In this document: one piece after another, positions 1 to 37,909 of the stretch
Position numbering within the stretch: the first letter of the stretch is position 1
Layout of the letters: each line of letters starts with the position of its first letter
IMG/VR virus record: IMGVR_UViG_3300027770_000012
Location: 1 to 37,909 of that record
Length of the DNA stretch: 37,909 bases
Strand: one strand, 5' to 3'
Origin: a virus
Notes under the pieces: generated by a model
The model's database searches: none
Told to the model about the DNA's origin: nothing
The model's input: only the letters and a program-made list of their open reading frames with translations
Position numbers and translations under genes: made by a program

Positions 1-35
1 GTAAACAGGCATATTAGCTATAGTTCTTCTTATCC
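1..35. repeat. Terminal direct repeat (circular contig overlap), left copy
   Basis: Bases 1-35 are identical to 37875-37909. Joining them gives a circle in which the gene ending at 14 is followed, after one base, by the start codon of the gene at 37608-37886. This is what an assembler leaves on a circular or circularly permuted genome. A true 35-bp direct terminal repeat is less likely because the junction falls between two tightly packed structural genes, far from the terminase genes. Confidence 0.93.
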
Positions 36-9000: not shown

Positions 9001-10056
9001 ATGAAACACACACAATCGGGAGCGGAAACTATCCCCGCCAAAGTGGATAGAGAGAGACTGATGAATGAGTTCTATAGAGGGATATTAGTCAAGAGTCGCC
9101 AAGCTTACGCATGGCAACCGAAAGCCGTTGCGGTTAGGAGTCGAATTGCAACGGAAGACATGACGTATGAGGAGCGTCAAGAGATTAGAAACGGACGTAA
9201 CGCGATCCGGCTTGCTAGGGGATATAACAGAGTCGAAGATAAGCGTCCGGAAGAGGTAAAAGATAAGTACATGAAAGCATTTAGCGGAAACCTCGTTTCC
9301 GTAGAGTTAGAATGCGTATTCCACAAGGATTATTCCGTTCCAACGGAAAAGGATCTCGGAATGCTGACAGAGGTTGTGGGAGATGGATCTGTAAGATATG
9401 AAGATCACTCCGGAGAAGATGGCTCCGGTGCTGAAGTGAAAGTGACAATGCGTAGCGAGAATCCGGTACGCTTGAAAGGTATTGTGGATAAGATTACCGC
9501 GATGGGAGGTGAAGTGAATACTACATGCGGAATGCACGTCCACCTCGACCAGCGCGGAGTCTCCAAAGTGACGGCGACAAAGAGAGCCAAACGGCTTGTT
9601 AAGTCTCTTCCGGCTCTTATGAAGCTAGTCGCCCCTTCACGTTTGGAGAATCGTTTCTGTCAAATGAACAGAGCCATCCTTAAACATGGAACATATCGGT
9701 TTAACTCGGATCGATATACTATGATTAACTACTTGTCCGCATATCGGAAACATAAAACGATAGAAGTTCGGCTCCATGGCGGAACGCTTGACTTTTGGAA
9801 GGTCTTGGGATGGATCAAGCTTTGTCAATTCATCCAAAACTCTTCCGAGATTGATGCCGTAGCGAAAAAGCGTGATGGCAATTCCTTGGCAATAGGAGTC
9901 GAGGATCTTATCCGCATGGAGAGTCTTCCGGAGTCGATCCGGCTTTATGTGTGGAGACGTTTCCGGCAGTTTCACGTCCACCATGCACATTCGCTCCGGA
10001 CTAAACTCATAGAAGAAAATAAAATCCATCTTACCGATGGAATGGCAATTAGCTGA
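9001..10056 (+). CDS. Amidoligase (COOH-NH2 ligase, Amidoligase_2-type, glutamine-synthetase fold)
   Basis: A 351-residue protein with the signature of the GS-fold amidoligases, ATP-dependent enzymes that join a carboxylate to an amine. Visible motifs are VSVELE at 99-104 (metal/ATP-binding Glu pair), GDGSVR at 127-132, an acidic EVKV strand at 145-148, CGMHVHLD at 176-183 (the family's G-hHVH box), Arg/Asn residues at 215-223, and KTIEVRLHGGTL at 252-263 (the ExR..GT motif). It is the first gene of a plus-strand cassette and precedes a glutamine amidotransferase that could supply ammonia or cleave a gamma-glutamyl bond. The ATG at 9001 has no clear ribosome site; an ATG at 9061 (after GAGAGA) is a reasonable alternative. 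Substrate unknown. Confidence 0.85.
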   Translation: MKHTQSGAETIPAKVDRERLMNEFYRGILVKSRQAYAWQPKAVAVRSRIATEDMTYEERQEIRNGRNAIRLARGYNRVEDKRPEEVKDKYMKAFSGNLVSVELECVFHKDYSVPTEKDLGMLTEVVGDGSVRYEDHSGEDGSGAEVKVTMRSENPVRLKGIVDKITAMGGEVNTTCGMHVHLDQRGVSKVTATKRAKRLVKSLPALMKLVAPSRLENRFCQMNRAILKHGTYRFNSDRYTMINYLSAYRKHKTIEVRLHGGTLDFWKVLGWIKLCQFIQNSSEIDAVAKKRDGNSLAIGVEDLIRMESLPESIRLYVWRRFRQFHVHHAHSLRTKLIEENKIHLTDGMAIS

Positions 10057-10074
10057 AGGAAAGGAAAATACAAT

Positions 10075-11115
10075 ATGTGCAAACTATTAGGATTCTCAGT
10101 ATCGGAAAAAGTTAGCGAAGGAAAACTCTCGGAGATTATCCAAACCGCTCGCGATCTTCTCAAAGATCAAAAAGACGGCTTTGGGTATGCTCTATCCGGT
10201 GGGGATATTAAGGGGATAACATCCCTACGGCTTACAACCGGTTCCCTCCTCGGATACAATTATCCTGAAGTTGGGGAATGGGAAAGCTTGGCGGATCAAC
10301 CCTATGAGGCAAAAGGGAAGCTTTCTCCATGCACCGGAGGGATCTTCCATGGCAGAATCTCCACCAATTCGCTAGGAGTTGAGAACACTCACCCTTTTGT
10401 GAATGATGATCTTGCCTTGGCTCATAATGGGATAGTGGATTACTCCGGAAAGAAGAGAGCCAAAAAAGGAGTGTGTGATAGTGAAGACTTGTTTAACACA
10501 TTCACGATAGGCAAGGGATGGCGCGAGTTGTCGAAACACTACTCCGGATATGCGGGGATTCTTATCCTACGCTCCGGAGGAGCCTTGACGATTTATCGTG
10601 ACAGCACCCCCAACCTTCACATTTGCCTAGTCTCCGGAGGAATTGTAGTGGGAACGACACTCCATGACGTGACAAAGCTTGCGAGCCTTTTCGATAAGGT
10701 TCCGAACGCGCCATGGATGCTCAAACCAGACTTTGCGACAACAATCCAAGATGGGAAGATCATAGGAAAAGAATCGGTCAAACCTATGCCCTCTCGCTCC
10801 TTTGGCGCGAAAGACTCTAAAAGTTTGGGGTCTTCCGGATATTTGGGATATTCCGGATATTCCGGATACGGGAGCCTGTCGAAGACTCAGGAAAAAGAAT
10901 TGTTTCCGGATTATGACGTTTCGCCGTCCGCAGACGTAAATTCGGAAGCTTGGGAAGATGGATACCAATCCGGATATGATGACGGACTGAAGGGATACAC
11001 ACACACTATCCTTTCAGCGGATAGGAATTACAAAGCCGGATACAATGATGGATACAAAGACGGCGAGTTAGAGAAAAACGCTCCGAGCGTAGCATCCGGT
11101 GAGGTATGTCTATGA
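10075..11115 (+). CDS. Class II glutamine amidotransferase (Ntn-hydrolase) with GY-repeat tail
   Basis: A 346-residue protein beginning MC, so Cys2 becomes the N-terminal nucleophile once Met is removed. Class II glutaminase motifs follow: FHGRIST 91-97, NTHPF 104-108, LAHNGIV 115-121 and the acidic SEDLF 136-140. Such domains hydrolyse glutamine to ammonia or act on gamma-glutamyl amides. Residues about 235-275 are a low-complexity linker with GYLGYSGYSGYG. The C-terminus has two GYxxGYxDG copies (about 296-304 and 322-330) of unknown role. GGAAAGGAAA precedes the ATG, 18 bases after the amidoligase stop. No synthase or PRTase domain is fused, so the amidoligase next door is the obvious partner. 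Confidence 0.88.
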   Translation: MCKLLGFSVSEKVSEGKLSEIIQTARDLLKDQKDGFGYALSGGDIKGITSLRLTTGSLLGYNYPEVGEWESLADQPYEAKGKLSPCTGGIFHGRISTNSLGVENTHPFVNDDLALAHNGIVDYSGKKRAKKGVCDSEDLFNTFTIGKGWRELSKHYSGYAGILILRSGGALTIYRDSTPNLHICLVSGGIVVGTTLHDVTKLASLFDKVPNAPWMLKPDFATTIQDGKIIGKESVKPMPSRSFGAKDSKSLGSSGYLGYSGYSGYGSLSKTQEKELFPDYDVSPSADVNSEAWEDGYQSGYDDGLKGYTHTILSADRNYKAGYNDGYKDGELEKNAPSVASGEVCL

Positions 11116-23892: not shown

Positions 23893-24339
23893 TTATTTGT
23901 TTGGGTTTATTGTTGTTGGGGTAAGGTCTTCAAAAGCTGGTGACTTGACGTAAAAGCCCTGCGCGATGGTTGCGGTCTTCGCATATTCAATAGTGACATT
24001 CGCGGGCGCGATCTGTCGAGCTAATTCGCACACGCTGTCTGCGGTTAAAATAACAAGCCATTCCTTGCGACCATTACGGCGGAAGAACACTGCCGGTATC
24101 TTACCTGCCGGACAATCTTTTTTAGATTGCTCCATCCACTGCTCTGGCTTGAGTGCCTCACAACGCTTGCCTTCGATATGGAAGGGAAAGTTCTCGCAAA
24201 CAACATCTCCGCTACCACCTTCTGGATTGCCAGCGTATTGTTGTGTACGCCTAGCCTTACGCCAGCCTTGTTCGCGCAGATAGTTAGCCAATTCGCGCTC
24301 TCCCGCCGCTCCCTTTGCTCTGCTGTTTATTTTTCCCAT
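23893..24339 (-). CDS. Holliday-junction-resolvase-like PD-(D/E)XK nuclease
   Basis: 148 residues. The N-terminal SRAKGAAGERELANYLREQGW supplies the early Glu (E14); then SGDVVC (D45) and HIEGKRCEAL (E56-x-K58) complete the PD-(D/E)XK core, followed by W68-EQSKKDC and a strand-rich end. The GxxxE...D..ExK spacing and small size match phage Holliday junction resolvases of the Hjc-like type. It would resolve recombination intermediates before packaging. It overlaps the previous gene by 13 bases. Confidence 0.75.
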   Translation of the reverse strand: MGKINSRAKGAAGERELANYLREQGWRKARRTQQYAGNPEGGSGDVVCENFPFHIEGKRCEALKPEQWMEQSKKDCPAGKIPAVFFRRNGRKEWLVILTADSVCELARQIAPANVTIEYAKTATIAQGFYVKSPAFEDLTPTTINPNK

Positions 24340-24563
24340 GTGACGCTCATTGTTAGGTCAGTTGCATCGTCTCCGTCAATCATAAAATGAGCCGGTCCAT
24401 TTTTAACGCATTGTTCCATGAACTCATTCATGGCTTTATTAGAAACAGTAAACGACCTGCTTTTTGACTCCATGCATAAAGAGCCAAAGATAGTTGAGAA
24501 AAATTGCTTTTGGAACTTCCACCCAAGTTCGCTTACTTGTATCGAATCTTGGTTTTTTTCCAT
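24327..24563 (-). CDS. Hypothetical small protein (78 aa)
   Basis: A 78-residue alpha/beta protein (FQKQFFSTIFGSLC; SRSFTVSNKAMNEFMEQCVKNG; DATDLTMSVTW). No family recognised. It is encoded directly before the resolvase-like nuclease and overlaps it. The 54 bases upstream show nothing notable. Confidence 0.62.
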   Translation of the reverse strand: MEKNQDSIQVSELGWKFQKQFFSTIFGSLCMESKSRSFTVSNKAMNEFMEQCVKNGPAHFMIDGDDATDLTMSVTWEK

Positions 24564-24617
24564 TCAGATATGGCTAGGGATTTAGCCAATTCCGGTCAAT
24601 AACAAAATAACCGCTAT

Positions 24618-24797
24618 TTAATTAAGCCAAGTTTTATTAGCGCGACTGATATCATCATTAAATTTTCTTATCATTGCCATCATGCTTAACTTTTGCACTA
24701 TCTTCTTATTTTTCTTAACCCAAGCCACAGCCTCATCAAAGGATTCCGCGTCCTTCAACCCTTCCTCAAACTTAGCCCACGCCTCTTTTTCGTTCAC
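24618..24797 (-). CDS. Small helical protein, GTG start, coupled to nuclease (59 aa)
   Basis: A 59-residue basic helical protein (GTG start, read MNEKEAWAKFEEGLKDAESF...) whose GTG overlaps the nuclease stop (GTGA). Composition is that of a real protein, with amphipathic helices and a C-terminal NKTWLN. The position suggests translation coupled to the upstream PD-(D/E)XK gene. Function unknown. Confidence 0.6.
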   Translation of the reverse strand: MNEKEAWAKFEEGLKDAESFDEAVAWVKKNKKIVQKLSMMAMIRKFNDDISRANKTWLN

Positions 24798-25177
24798 AGA
24801 TTCTTAAATACACGCCATCCCCCGCCTGTCGATGGGCAAAGCTTTGTTGTTACCGACCTGCACTTGGCAATTGGCAATAACCAAAATAAATCATCGTTCA
24901 TGCCCCAACATGCAACGTAATCGACACCACTAATAGCGCGCTTGGGTATATTAAACCCATTACCAGTGCTGGTGGTGAACCGGTACTTGGTGCGTCCAGG
25001 TTCTACAGTCTGCGCCGTCTTAACCTGAATGCGGTAAAACCTTCCATTCTTCTCGGCCACCACATCATACCCAGCAAAATCCTCGTATGGGGTAAGCACA
25101 TTGTACCCGCAACGGAGCAACGCGCCGGTAACGCGGGCTACCCCAACTGCACCTACTTGTCTTGATGTTAATTTCAT
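24794..25177 (-). CDS. PD-(D/E)XK endonuclease (PDDEXK_5-like)
   Basis: 127 residues with the core VARVTGALLRCGYNVLTPYEDFAGYDVVAE then YRIQVKTAQ. D38 and the IQVK motif (Gln51-x-Lys53) match a small family of PD-(D/E)XK nucleases whose catalytic acid is replaced by Gln in QxK variants. It is the first gene of the early minus-strand operon and stands divergent from the plus-strand secreted-protein gene. It might cut host DNA or act in recombination. Likely active, but the Q-x-K variant is less certain than E-x-K. Confidence 0.72.
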   Translation of the reverse strand: MKLTSRQVGAVGVARVTGALLRCGYNVLTPYEDFAGYDVVAEKNGRFYRIQVKTAQTVEPGRTKYRFTTSTGNGFNIPKRAISGVDYVACWGMNDDLFWLLPIAKCRSVTTKLCPSTGGGWRVFKNL

Positions 25178-25179
25178 GC

Positions 25180-25208
25180 TTGACGGCTTTCGGTTTGTGC
25201 TAGATACT
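25180..25208 (+). promoter_or_regulatory. Candidate sigma70-type promoter of the secreted repeat protein
   Basis: TTGACG at 25180-25185, a 17-base spacer and GATACT at 25203-25208 (4 of 6 to TATAAT). The start of transcription would fall at about 25215, right at the ATG (25216), so the mRNA would be leaderless. No Shine-Dalgarno site is present, which fits. Inferred from motifs only. Confidence 0.5.
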
Positions 25209-25215
25209 TTTTACT

Positions 25216-25578
25216 ATGAAAACAACACAAATATTATTAACCATTGTTCTTGCAACCGCAACAGCCAACGCTCAAGAGGCTCTTGATGCCATTGATGCCG
25301 TAACCGGCGGAGTTTATGAAGGTAGCGGTAGCTTTGCTAGGGCTGGCAATGTTGCGGTAGGCTCTGGTGGCGCAATTATTCAAGCCGGAACAACCTTCTT
25401 CACGCCCACAGGCGTTATTCAACAGGCCGGATGCTCTTATCTTACCGCTCATGGCACAACTGTAAGGGCTGGTGATTCGTTCATTTCAAATAAATCAACT
25501 GTTGTTTATGTGGATGGAGTATTTGCCGGAACGCGCCCAGCGGTTGTCGCTGGAGGCACTATTCTAAAGGCTAAATAA
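25216..25578 (+). CDS. Secreted 14-residue-repeat (solenoid) protein
   Basis: A 120-residue protein on the strand opposite to its neighbours. Residues 1-19 are a signal peptide (MKTTQILLTIVLATATANA, cut before Gln20). From 42 to 97 it is four back-to-back 14-residue units: RAGNVAVGSGGAII, QAGTTFFTPTGVIQ, QAGCSYLTAHGTTV and RAGDSFISNKSTVV. Each starts (R/Q)AG, and further degenerate copies flank them. A short regular repeat with alternating small and hydrophobic residues suggests a beta-solenoid. It is exported, probably to the periplasm or surface. It may be a moron expressed by its own promoter, for example altering the cell surface or blocking other phages. Family not recognised. Its stop is immediately followed by the convergent lysozyme stop. 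Confidence 0.78.
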   Translation: MKTTQILLTIVLATATANAQEALDAIDAVTGGVYEGSGSFARAGNVAVGSGGAIIQAGTTFFTPTGVIQQAGCSYLTAHGTTVRAGDSFISNKSTVVYVDGVFAGTRPAVVAGGTILKAK

Positions 25579-26289
25579 TCACCCACTACCAAACAGGGAA
25601 AACCTATTGTTTATCCTGTTCTGTAGACCATTCAGAAATTTCTTTCTGTCTGGATTCTTGCTGGCCATACGCAACTCATCGTTCCATTGAGCCTTGCTTG
25701 CTTCAAACATTAGGCTTTTTGGGTCAACTTGTCTAATGGCATTGAGTGTTTGCGGTCCAATTGCGCCGTCAACCTTTACTGGAACACCAAGATTATTTAA
25801 TGCTTGTTGCATATATTTTGTTGCACCGCCCACGCCTCGATTAAACGCAAGATCCTGCGCGAATGGCCTAACTGCATCTGGAAGCTTTTGCGTGAATGGG
25901 GCTGTGTATTGAACAACGTATTCTGCCGCCGCTTGTTCTCTTTGGTTTGGAGATAGTGATGATATTGCTTTGAATGCATCCGGATGATACTTGTTGTTAA
26001 TTCCAGCTACCTCGTAACTTCCACCCATATCTCCGGATGGCAACTTATATACAGCAAGATTCCCGTTCTTATCGCGCCTGCTTTCAAAATCAACTGTCTT
26101 CATCGCCGCGGAAATAAGCGGATCAAGCTCTGCCTGTGTCAGAGGAATTGATTCAGTCATTTTTTGAAGCACAGGATTCTTTGGCGTTTCAATTTCTTTG
26201 CGAATAGATGCATCCATAATGTCCCTTTCCATTCTCTTTGGAATAAAGTTTGACTGCCGTTCCGCGCCGTACACCTGGAATGATGCCAT
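25579..26289 (-). CDS. Virion-associated muramidase, GH108-like with PG_binding_3 domain
   Basis: 236 residues. The central part (FESRRDKNG, then GDMGGSYEVAGINNKYHP) parallels the E...D.GG.T..GI region of GH108 muramidases. Residues about 155-205 (FNRGVGGATKYMQQALN, VDGAIGPQTLNAI) are a clear PG_binding_3 signature. The first 45 residues have no signal peptide and look like a virion-linking segment. It ends the late operon after the ejection-protein genes, so it may be a particle-borne lysozyme that opens peptidoglycan during DNA entry, or the lysis endolysin, or both. Confidence 0.78.
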   Translation of the reverse strand: MASFQVYGAERQSNFIPKRMERDIMDASIRKEIETPKNPVLQKMTESIPLTQAELDPLISAAMKTVDFESRRDKNGNLAVYKLPSGDMGGSYEVAGINNKYHPDAFKAISSLSPNQREQAAAEYVVQYTAPFTQKLPDAVRPFAQDLAFNRGVGGATKYMQQALNNLGVPVKVDGAIGPQTLNAIRQVDPKSLMFEASKAQWNDELRMASKNPDRKKFLNGLQNRINNRFSLFGSG

Positions 26290-26290
26290 A

Positions 26291-28363
26291 TTACTTACCT
26301 AGCGAATTTTGGATTGCCTGCCTCTTTAGAATTTTAGCCATTGCATCCAAGTCGGGATCATCCTCGTCATTAGCCAATGATTGAAGGCTTGCCGCGGCTG
26401 CCGGAAGCTGGTTGGGCGTGATTTCAGTATTCTTAGCAAGCCAGCGTACATATTTTGGATTCGTAAATAGTTTAGATCCAAGATAGCTCGTTCCAACAAG
26501 TCCAGCCACTCCTCCGGAAACACCAAACTTTCCAACTCCAGCAGATCCAAAGAAAGTAGTCGCAAGCGCAATAGGGGTAAGTCCGGCAGCAGTTCCGGAT
26601 GGATTCGCAAGAACATTGCCACCACTGCGAACAAGAGCTGATGCTCTGGCTATCTTCTCAATATCCCGCCTAAAATCAGAACCATATCTTCCAAAAAGCT
26701 GTTGCTTGGCCGGATTGCTGAGTTTATTGAAGTTAGTAAGAAATGTGCTTGAACTCCAAACATCACCAATCTCATTTTGCTGACCAGGCAAAGCCCTGCC
26801 CATGCGCTCAACAAATGTGCTTGTAACTGCCTTCTGGTCTTCCAGAGGAAGGCTTTTCATCAAGGCCGAAAGCCTTGTTCCTCCAGATTTTGAACCAGAA
26901 AACGCAGCATTGTAAATCAACTCTGGCTCAAGCTTGTTTACAAAGCTTTGGAGTTTATCGGCTCTTTCGTGTAACGCTTTTGAATAATTGCTTGCCCTGC
27001 TAAATAAGTTTAATGCCTCGTCTCCCTGTTCGGCCGCCAATACCTTGATATCATCTGATAGCGCACCATAAAGCAACTTAAATTCACGCCTTGGAACATC
27101 GTTTAGAAGGCTTATTCCGGCCAAGGCGTTTCCTATTTTACTCCTAAGAACCCTAAGTGCCTCAACGCTCAAAGTGCCTGTCTTCTTAATGTCGCTATCA
27201 AAATCAGCCTTAATTTTAGAGAGCATTGGATTTTCCATTCCAGCACTCAGGGCAGGCGCACCTGGTATTGGTTGCATAACCCCCTTCAGTGTTGATTGAA
27301 AATTGTCTACAGAACTTTGAGTGTTTGATGGAAGAAGCGTTTCAAGGTTATTGTAAAGTCTTGATTCAACAACTCGTTTTTGACCGAAAACCTTTGGAAC
27401 TCCTTCTTTAATTCCTGCTCCAGCAACGCTAGGCTCTGTAACCGGAGACAATTCTTCAGTAATTCCCCTCAACTTTTCCTGCAATCCCCTTTGTTGCGCT
27501 GTTCCGAAATCCCTTAAAACACCTCCAGATCCAGGTATTTTAGCCATTCCCGCCTCAAGACCCTTAATCGGAGTAGTTTGTGTTGCTTGTCCGGCGGTAG
27601 GCGTGAGGCCGACATCTTCAAAAGCCCTAATATTGGAAGCAATGTCTTCTGCTTTTGCCCCACCCCTCAAAAGTGATCTTATTCCTCCCTCGCCAAGCGT
27701 TGCTAGGCTTGGAACAGCGACTCCGGCTGCGCCCGCAGCCATTTGACCCACTGGCCCTGCTCCAGCCTGCCTAGCTCCCTCAGATGCAAGCCCGCCACCA
27801 ATTGCTTGAAATGATTGTAATGCTGGCCTTTCAGTAAGAATGTTTCCAACACCCCTTAGAACTGGAGACGATGCTTGTTGCAAAATCCCTCCAGCACCAA
27901 GAGTTGGAAGCATTGATGTGCCTGCCTCAACCGCCGCCTGGGAAAGCTTCTCAGCAGAAGTTACAGGATTTGGTAGCCCTGCTTCATTTTTAAGTTGTTC
28001 AAGAACGTCACCAAGAGCTGGAAGCCTTCCTTGCACCCCAACCATTCCGGCTATCGCATTGTAAATTCTAGGTGCGTAATCGGTAATCGCTCCTGCCGTT
28101 GCTCCGGCCAGTGCGCCAGGAACTGCGCCAACTCCAGCCAATGGTGCGCCCATTGCCGCGCCAGCCAATGCGCCGGTTGTGATGGGGTTGATTGCCGCGC
28201 GAGCGGTAAGCCCAGCCTGCCTTTGTAGGTAATCTCCAGTTGTCTGAGGCTCTACAGCAGTTCTTGTTTGGTTTAGATCAGATACAAATTTATTGATCTG
28301 TTCCGGAGTTGAACTATCCGGAAGGTCAAACTGACCGACTCCAGGTACATCAAGGATTGGCAT
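26291..28363 (-). CDS. Large internal virion/ejection protein (690 aa)
   Basis: 690 residues. The N-terminus MPILDVPGVGQFDLPDSSTP is a short motif found at the start of many podoviral injected proteins. Residues about 55-95 are a Gly/Ala-rich hydrophobic segment (ITTGALAGAAMGAPLAGVGAVPGALAGATAGAI) that could insert into a membrane, with a second such segment near 605-630. The rest is helical. Size, composition and place beside the lysozyme fit an ejection protein that forms part of the DNA channel across the cell envelope. Confidence 0.75.
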   Translation of the reverse strand: MPILDVPGVGQFDLPDSSTPEQINKFVSDLNQTRTAVEPQTTGDYLQRQAGLTARAAINPITTGALAGAAMGAPLAGVGAVPGALAGATAGAITDYAPRIYNAIAGMVGVQGRLPALGDVLEQLKNEAGLPNPVTSAEKLSQAAVEAGTSMLPTLGAGGILQQASSPVLRGVGNILTERPALQSFQAIGGGLASEGARQAGAGPVGQMAAGAAGVAVPSLATLGEGGIRSLLRGGAKAEDIASNIRAFEDVGLTPTAGQATQTTPIKGLEAGMAKIPGSGGVLRDFGTAQQRGLQEKLRGITEELSPVTEPSVAGAGIKEGVPKVFGQKRVVESRLYNNLETLLPSNTQSSVDNFQSTLKGVMQPIPGAPALSAGMENPMLSKIKADFDSDIKKTGTLSVEALRVLRSKIGNALAGISLLNDVPRREFKLLYGALSDDIKVLAAEQGDEALNLFSRASNYSKALHERADKLQSFVNKLEPELIYNAAFSGSKSGGTRLSALMKSLPLEDQKAVTSTFVERMGRALPGQQNEIGDVWSSSTFLTNFNKLSNPAKQQLFGRYGSDFRRDIEKIARASALVRSGGNVLANPSGTAAGLTPIALATTFFGSAGVGKFGVSGGVAGLVGTSYLGSKLFTNPKYVRWLAKNTEITPNQLPAAAASLQSLANDEDDPDLDAMAKILKRQAIQNSLGK

Positions 28364-29328
28364 TATCTTGGAATGACAATGTTGCCGTTTGCGTCAATCG
28401 TTGTTTGAATTACCTGTCTGGATTGAGTGCCAGTAGCACCTGCTCTTCCAGATGCCTTACTACCTGTGCCAAGATTCTCTCGAAGATCATCCGGAAGAAG
28501 CGTATCTGGAATGTCATATCCAGAATCACGAAGAACCTGTAATTTACCAAGATATTCACGCCGTCTTTGCGCTCCGAATGCCATCATTCTATCGGCAAAA
28601 TCATTTGCATTTGGATCTCCGATTTCAGCCATAAATCTTTTTGCTTCGCTATCTGTCACGTTACCACCAGATCTTGCCTTTAATATCTGATTTTGTACTC
28701 CAGAAAAAGCCTGCATCATTTTAGTGTAATCCGGATATCCAGATGTTGACGCAATCACAGGATTTACCCTGCCTCTAATTGGACCATAAAGATCAGTGCT
28801 TGTAATGGATTCATTTGCAAATTTGCCAAGATCAACAAGAGCCTTGTAATCAGTCAACTCGCCAATCTCTTTGATTGGAAGCTTCTTAAAATTATCCTTT
28901 GCGGACTTATACATATCGTCTCTTGCAACAGTAAGGGCTTGAGCCAATCCTTGATTGCCGGATGCCTGCGCCTCTGCAATTCTTTGATTTGCGTAAGCCA
29001 AGCCTTGCGCTGCTGTCTCAAACTTTGTTGCCATCGCTTGGTTAACTCTTTCAGCCGGAGTTACGGATGGTATATTTCCCAATCCAGGCACGTTAACCGC
29101 GCCTCCGTATTCCATCATTCTTTGATTCGCAACAGCCCTTCTTCCTGGGGTTGCGTTTGGATCATTATAAATGGCCTGTTCTTGGTCAATCAAAGATCCG
29201 CGAACATCTGCATCCATGATGTCCTTGTCCGCGGCAAGTTTCTTAACGGAAAGATCGGTAAGCCTCTGGCGCAATTCGCGTTCTTTTTTTGCTTCCGGCC
29301 CTTCAAAATTAAAGCTTAGTCCACCCAT
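28363..29328 (-). CDS. Internal virion protein (321 aa)
   Basis: A 321-residue, mainly helical, Gln/Ala-rich protein (KERELRQRLTDLSVKKLAADK, ATKFETAAQGLAYANQRIAEA, and so on) with a Gly/Ser/Thr-rich tail ending DANGNIVIPR. No enzyme motif. Overlaps the start of the next gene by TAATG. Position between two large helical proteins suggests an internal core or ejection protein. Confidence 0.7.
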   Translation of the reverse strand: MGGLSFNFEGPEAKKERELRQRLTDLSVKKLAADKDIMDADVRGSLIDQEQAIYNDPNATPGRRAVANQRMMEYGGAVNVPGLGNIPSVTPAERVNQAMATKFETAAQGLAYANQRIAEAQASGNQGLAQALTVARDDMYKSAKDNFKKLPIKEIGELTDYKALVDLGKFANESITSTDLYGPIRGRVNPVIASTSGYPDYTKMMQAFSGVQNQILKARSGGNVTDSEAKRFMAEIGDPNANDFADRMMAFGAQRRREYLGKLQVLRDSGYDIPDTLLPDDLRENLGTGSKASGRAGATGTQSRQVIQTTIDANGNIVIPR

Positions 29329-37607: not shown

Positions 37608-37886
37608 TTATTTTCTCCTTATAGCCGCACGTTTGATGCTATCTGGCGTGTACTGGCTTCTAAACCTACTGCCAAGCTTTTGTTCCTGGCGATAGTACCC
37701 CTTCAACAAGTTTGTTTGATTTACCCCAAGCGGATTGTCGAGGGGTTCTCCAACCCCCACTAGGGATAATCTTTGCGGGACGGTGAATCGTTTAAGGTAA
37801 CGAGGGACAGAATCCCTTTCGGCCACAGCCTTTTCCAGTTCGACAACTTTCCCATTTCTGGAGTCCTCGTACTGGTAAACAGGCAT
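37608..37886 (-). CDS. Small basic protein, FmdB-like N-terminus (92 aa)
   Basis: A 92-residue protein beginning MPVYQYEDSRNGKVVELEKAVAERDSVP. The first 30 residues have the shape of FmdB-type zinc-ribbon proteins, but the Cys pairs are missing, so metal binding is unlikely. The C-terminus is basic (RSQYTPDSIKRAAIRRK). The start at 37886 lies in the 35-base overlap with the left end of the contig. Confidence 0.68.
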   Translation of the reverse strand: MPVYQYEDSRNGKVVELEKAVAERDSVPRYLKRFTVPQRLSLVGVGEPLDNPLGVNQTNLLKGYYRQEQKLGSRFRSQYTPDSIKRAAIRRK

Positions 37887-37909
37887 ATTAGCTATAGTTC
37901 TTCTTATCC
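37875..37909. repeat. Terminal direct repeat (circular contig overlap), right copy
   Basis: Same 35 bases as 1-35. It contains the start codon (37884-37886) of the gene at 37608-37886, which on the circle lies one base downstream of the gene ending at position 14. Confidence 0.93.

What the first reader, a model, noticed from the sequence alone, without database searches (positions are those of the whole stretch)
25180..25578. Lone secreted protein made of four tandem 14-residue units, with a leaderless promoter arrangement
Residues 42-97 are four exact-length units each starting (R/Q)AG, behind a clear signal peptide. The gene faces against both flanking operons, its stop abuts the lysozyme stop, and TTGACG-N17-GATACT places the RNA start on the ATG. 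This looks like a moron: a gene the phage carries for the cell surface, perhaps constitutive. A 14-residue solenoid of this kind is not one I recognise.
Basis: partly seen in the sequence, partly recalled or inferred. Interest (0 to 1): 0.72.

Follow-up and report, generated by a model that had tools for sequence, protein, structure and literature searches.

The report
Swappable secreted protein in freshwater phages
A small exported protein built of 14-residue beta repeats sits at the same genome position in every related freshwater phage checked, always behind the same promoter placed right at its start codon, but its body is swapped between phages like a serotype; it most likely alters the infected cell's envelope, for example to keep rival phages out.

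Summary
ORF 25216-25578 has a signal peptide, a significant 14-residue period (z=5.9) and TTGACG-N17-GATACT ending 7 nt before the ATG. (1) Not a moron: a homologue lies convergent to the lysozyme in all 80 related loci found (one only as a fragment at a contig end), with the genome's GC. (2) The leaderless promoter is supported by comparison: TTGAC lies 34-38 nt before the ATG in 50 of 51 distinct upstream regions. It is not unique: gene 24327-24563 shows the same geometry. (3) AlphaFold2 predicts ordered, regular strands (6+4 per 14 residues; pLDDT 88, pTM 0.76), not disorder. Turn motifs favour a hairpin meander over a parallel solenoid, unresolved. (4) New: the mature body is an exchanged cassette. 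Six pairs of loci with flanking proteins 87-99% identical have bodies only 24-34% identical, while promoter and signal peptide stay nearly identical; within type A selection is strongly purifying. Six body types; no relative in Pfam, PHROGs, PDB, plasmid or phage records. Best functional reading: exported, superinfection-exclusion-like envelope protein (confidence 0.4, inferred). Body type does not track the tail fibre.

The parts
25180..25208 (+). Promoter TTGACG-N17-GATACT; expected RNA start on or within a base or two of the ATG (leaderless)
   Evidence: TTGAC at 34-38 nt before the ATG in 50 of 51 distinct upstream sequences
25216..25578 (+). Exported beta-repeat protein, 120 aa, type A body
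   Evidence: 9 close relatives, 79 homologues beside the lysozyme; type A mature dN/dS about 0.04-0.13
25216..25272 (+). Signal peptide, residues 1-19, cleavage ANA|Q expected
   Evidence: Sequence; same architecture in all six body types
25339..25506 (+). Four best 14-residue units, residues 42-97; strands of 6 and 4 residues with two-residue turns
25579..26289 (-). Lysozyme-like gene (PG_binding_3, endolysin PHROG), convergent neighbour, end of the structural module
24794..25177 (-). PD-(D/E)XK nuclease gene, divergent neighbour
24564..24599 (-). Second promoter of leaderless geometry (TTGACC 36 nt before the ATG of gene 24327-24563), reading leftward
   Evidence: Conserved in the relatives that have the gene

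Best explanation
A core gene of a clade of apparently virulent freshwater phages (host probably Verrucomicrobiota) makes a small exported beta-repeat protein from its own host-type, leaderless promoter. Shown by sequence: architecture, synteny, promoter conservation, exchange of the body between phages, purifying selection within type A. Inferred: it is made early by host RNA polymerase, exported by Sec, stays in the periplasm or on the surface, and blocks or modifies an envelope component that other phages need (superinfection exclusion); bodies are swapped by recombination in the conserved flanks because the useful specificity differs between communities.
For: Universal, syntenic, lone gene on the opposite strand; promoter conserved in place although sequence around it varies; signal peptide in all types; body replaced between near-identical flanks: lysozyme/body/nuclease identity 97/30/98, 96/29/98, 87/24/99, 95/32/91, 94/34/92, 92/34/93, with promoter and signal peptide 92-100% identical in DNA; low dN/dS within type A; no integrase in 14 records. 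Precedents for small exported early exclusion proteins: T4 Spackle (PMC7677548) and T5 Llp (PMC9586334).
Against: No functional, expression or localisation data. Body type does not correlate with the tail fibre (r=0.12), as a receptor-specific blocker might. Most pairs with similar flanks share the body (only 6 of 261 pairs are swapped, perhaps three or four events). The Verrucomicrobiota host rests on weak phage similarity.
Confidence: 0.4

Rival explanations
1. Spackle-like: a periplasmic inhibitor of the lysozyme encoded next door (possibly virion-borne), protecting the infected cell from incoming particles or timing lysis.
For: Always adjacent to this lysozyme; of all genes tested, body identity correlates most with the lysozyme (r=0.50).
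Against: Helicase, 12 kb away, correlates as well (0.49), so lineage explains it; near-identical lysozymes (95-97%) occur with bodies 29-32% alike.
Confidence: 0.15
2. Lysis accessory: a periplasmic or outer-membrane factor that helps the lysozyme release progeny.
For: Neighbour of the lysozyme; exported; universal.
Against: Opposite strand with its own host-type promoter; no lipobox and no second hydrophobic segment, so not a spanin of a known kind (sequence); lysis parts do not usually swap bodies like this.
Confidence: 0.12
3. Host-target or anti-defence protein acting in the envelope, body matched to the host strain rather than to rival phages.
For: Exported, exchanged cassette, not tied to the tail fibre.
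Against: No host target known; no homologue found in bacterial genomes by the two scans, though these need close matches.
Confidence: 0.2
4. Moron: an acquired gene for the cell surface, expressed from a silent or resident genome.
For: Lone gene, own promoter, opposite strand, signal peptide.
Against: Present in all relatives, GC equal to the genome, no integrase in 14 records, no terminator found.
Confidence: 0.07
5. Minor virion protein carried outside the cell through a signal-peptide-like N-terminus.
For: Lies at the end of the structural module; beta repeats are common in phage structural proteins.
Against: Opposite strand to all structural genes, own promoter, conserved cleavable-type signal peptide in all types.
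Confidence: 0.06

Closest known systems
T4 Spackle (gp61.3)
   Same: Small periplasmic early protein of a virulent phage (PMC7677548); here adjacent to a lysozyme gene
   Different: No sequence or Foldseek match to it was found; body does not track lysozyme identity
T5 Llp
   Same: Small exported protein of a virulent phage made for superinfection exclusion (PMC9586334)
   Different: Llp is a lipoprotein; here there is no cysteine at the expected cleavage site
Hairpin-repeat surface modules (choline-binding repeats, MORN)
   Same: Successive short beta hairpins with glycine-rich turns; choline-binding repeats form a solenoid of hairpins plus linkers (PMC4471590)
   Different: Unit is 14 residues without a linker; no Pfam match; fold not confirmed

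Membership tests
Phage moron | Own promoter, opposite or independent transcription | tested here: met
Phage moron | Absent from close relatives (recent addition), often odd composition | tested here: not met
   Homologue in 80 of 80 loci; GC 0.477 vs 0.472
Phage moron | Own terminator | tested here: not met
   No intrinsic terminator found after the stop by consensus scan
Superinfection exclusion protein | Exported to or acting at the envelope | tested here: inconclusive
   Signal peptide in every type by reading; no location data
Superinfection exclusion protein | Blocks infection by a second phage | not testable with these tools
   Needs phage and host
T4 Spackle-like lysozyme inhibitor | Sequence or fold similarity to Spackle | tested here: not met
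   Not among PDB sequence or Foldseek matches
T4 Spackle-like lysozyme inhibitor | Inhibits a virion lysozyme | not testable with these tools
   Identity covariation argues against a tight pair
T5 Llp-type exclusion lipoprotein | Lipobox cysteine at the signal cleavage site | tested here: not met
   Cleavage region ANA|Q, MA|ED, LG|QD etc., no cysteine
Leaderless gene | -10 element about 7 nt before the start codon, no Shine-Dalgarno | tested here: met
   RNA 5' end itself not mapped
Parallel beta-solenoid | Parallel coils stacked on each other | tested here: inconclusive
   Regular strands predicted but coordinates not available; no confident Foldseek match

The most novel reading that the evidence does not exclude
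A serotype-like specificity locus in virulent phages: one fixed leaderless promoter and signal peptide carry interchangeable exported beta-repeat bodies that decide which phages exclude which, built on a new 14-residue hairpin-repeat fold.
Probability: 0.3. Interest if true: 0.75.

Novelty: new variant of a known kind. Interest (0 to 1): 0.52.

Why it matters
Exclusion between virulent phages is known mainly from coliphages. A universal, exported, allele-swapping protein behind a fixed promoter would make exclusion groups in uncultured freshwater phages readable from sequence, and it gives a family with no match in Pfam, PHROGs or solved structures. It also offers two clear leaderless promoters in a phage whose likely hosts use few Shine-Dalgarno sequences.

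Tried and rejected
Pizza beta-propeller hits of the first profile (E 9e-9): each single repeat has E of about 0.6 or worse and the hits vanish with the broader alignment; a repeat-sum artefact. L010 hit: its stretch reads like an HU/IHF DNA-binding protein; chance. Two scans of bacterial genomes, with the protein and with a lysozyme alignment, found no relative, so no host could be named that way. The broad alignment was too diverse for a viral scan. Plasmid and phage searches with types D, A2 and D' found nothing real. Coupling of body type to the tail fibre rejected.

Full report
Observation. ORF 25216-25578 is as described. The 38-bp gap to the divergent nuclease gene holds TTGACG-N17-GATACT, then TTTTACT and the ATG; the convergent lysozyme gene abuts the stop. 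The 14-residue period is the strongest of lags 5-29 (z=5.9) and also the best lag in six divergent relatives.

Family. The protein matches nothing convincing in Pfam, PHROGs, PDB sequences, phage records or, through a type D relative, plasmids. Nine IMG/VR relatives are 85-100% identical. Searching with the lysozyme neighbour gave 80 loci, including those nine. In 79 of them an ORF of 93-126 aa with an MK-type signal peptide lies convergent to the lysozyme; the last locus is cut by a contig end, and the gene's 3' part is found on that same contig. Twenty-two representatives align and the bodies fall into six types at 45% identity. It is therefore a core gene, not a moron. A 35-bp exact repeat at the window ends suggests a complete, circular assembly; the gene then lies between the end of the leftward structural module (terminase through lysozyme) and the leftward replication module. 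No integrase was found in 14 records. TerL and lysozyme are nearest to Akkermansia phages, while portal and capsid are not informative, so a Verrucomicrobiota host is likely but unproven.

Promoter. In 51 distinct upstream sequences TTGAC begins 34-38 nt before the ATG in 50, 48 of them at 35-36 nt, although flanks and spacer differ. Loci with an unrelated upstream region, such as L024 and L046, keep TTGACC and TATACT at the same places. No Shine-Dalgarno lies before this ATG. The -10 hexamer is less conserved than TTGAC, and poor in some loci (L022, L038). The same geometry, TTGACC 36 nt before ATG, precedes the leftward gene 24327-24563 and is conserved in relatives that have it, so it may be a general trait of this phage's host-type promoters. 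Some Verrucomicrobia are reported as SD-scarce (PMC10783764), and a -10-like element about 10-12 bp before the start is the published sign of leaderless bacterial genes (PMC3160421).

Fold. AlphaFold2 on the family alignment gave mean pLDDT 88.4, pTM 0.76 and strands of 6 and 4 residues joined by two-residue turns. The mature part alone gave the same strands at lower confidence, pLDDT 82.9, with the other four models at 64-71. Foldseek found no match at E<=0.001 in PDB or viral structures. Turn one is mostly G-[DNST] and turn two of the best unit is P-x-G. These are typical hairpin turns, which is an inference for a meander and not a demonstration.

Exchange. Flanks can be 70-100% identical in DNA and promoter plus signal peptide 92-100%, while the body falls to about 30-50%. 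Six pairs of loci have both flanking proteins at least 85% identical and bodies 24-34% identical: L042/L057, L046/L070, L061/L080, L087/L090, L088/L090, L090/L091, out of 261 pairs with such flanks; they may reflect three or four events. The reverse case, similar bodies with a diverged flank, was counted in 55 pairs, but part of that count comes from nuclease ORFs delimited imperfectly by my script, so I give it little weight. Within type A the mature part is under strong purifying selection (dN/dS about 0.04-0.13). Across 22 records body identity correlates with lysozyme (0.50), helicase (0.49) and TerL (0.36) but not with the tail fibre (0.12) or the 604-aa structural protein (0.08).

Function. 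An exported protein with a host-type promoter, universal in an apparently virulent clade and exchanged as a cassette, is best explained as an envelope-acting exclusion or host-target factor. T4 Spackle and T5 Llp work in that way, but it is a member of neither family by the features tested. Early expression, location and exclusion are inferred, not shown.

Noticed in passing
window 24564-24599 (-): A second TTGAC promoter of leaderless geometry before gene 24327-24563, conserved as TTGACC...CCCTAGCCATA..TGG-ATG in relatives; it may start the leftward replication operon.
   Followed up: partly
window 1-35 and 37875-37909: Exact 35-bp direct repeat at the two ends: the record is probably a complete circular or circularly permuted genome.
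   Followed up: partly
window 26291-29328 (-): Two large proteins just upstream of the lysozyme (690 and 321 aa, possibly ejection proteins) have no blastp match in most relatives although the capsid is 83-97% identical; this module also seems to be replaced between phages.
   Followed up: no
window 9001-11115 (+): Two rightward genes (351 and 346 aa, the second with a weak glutamine-amidotransferase-like PHROG hit) are found only in the window's closest relatives.
   Followed up: no
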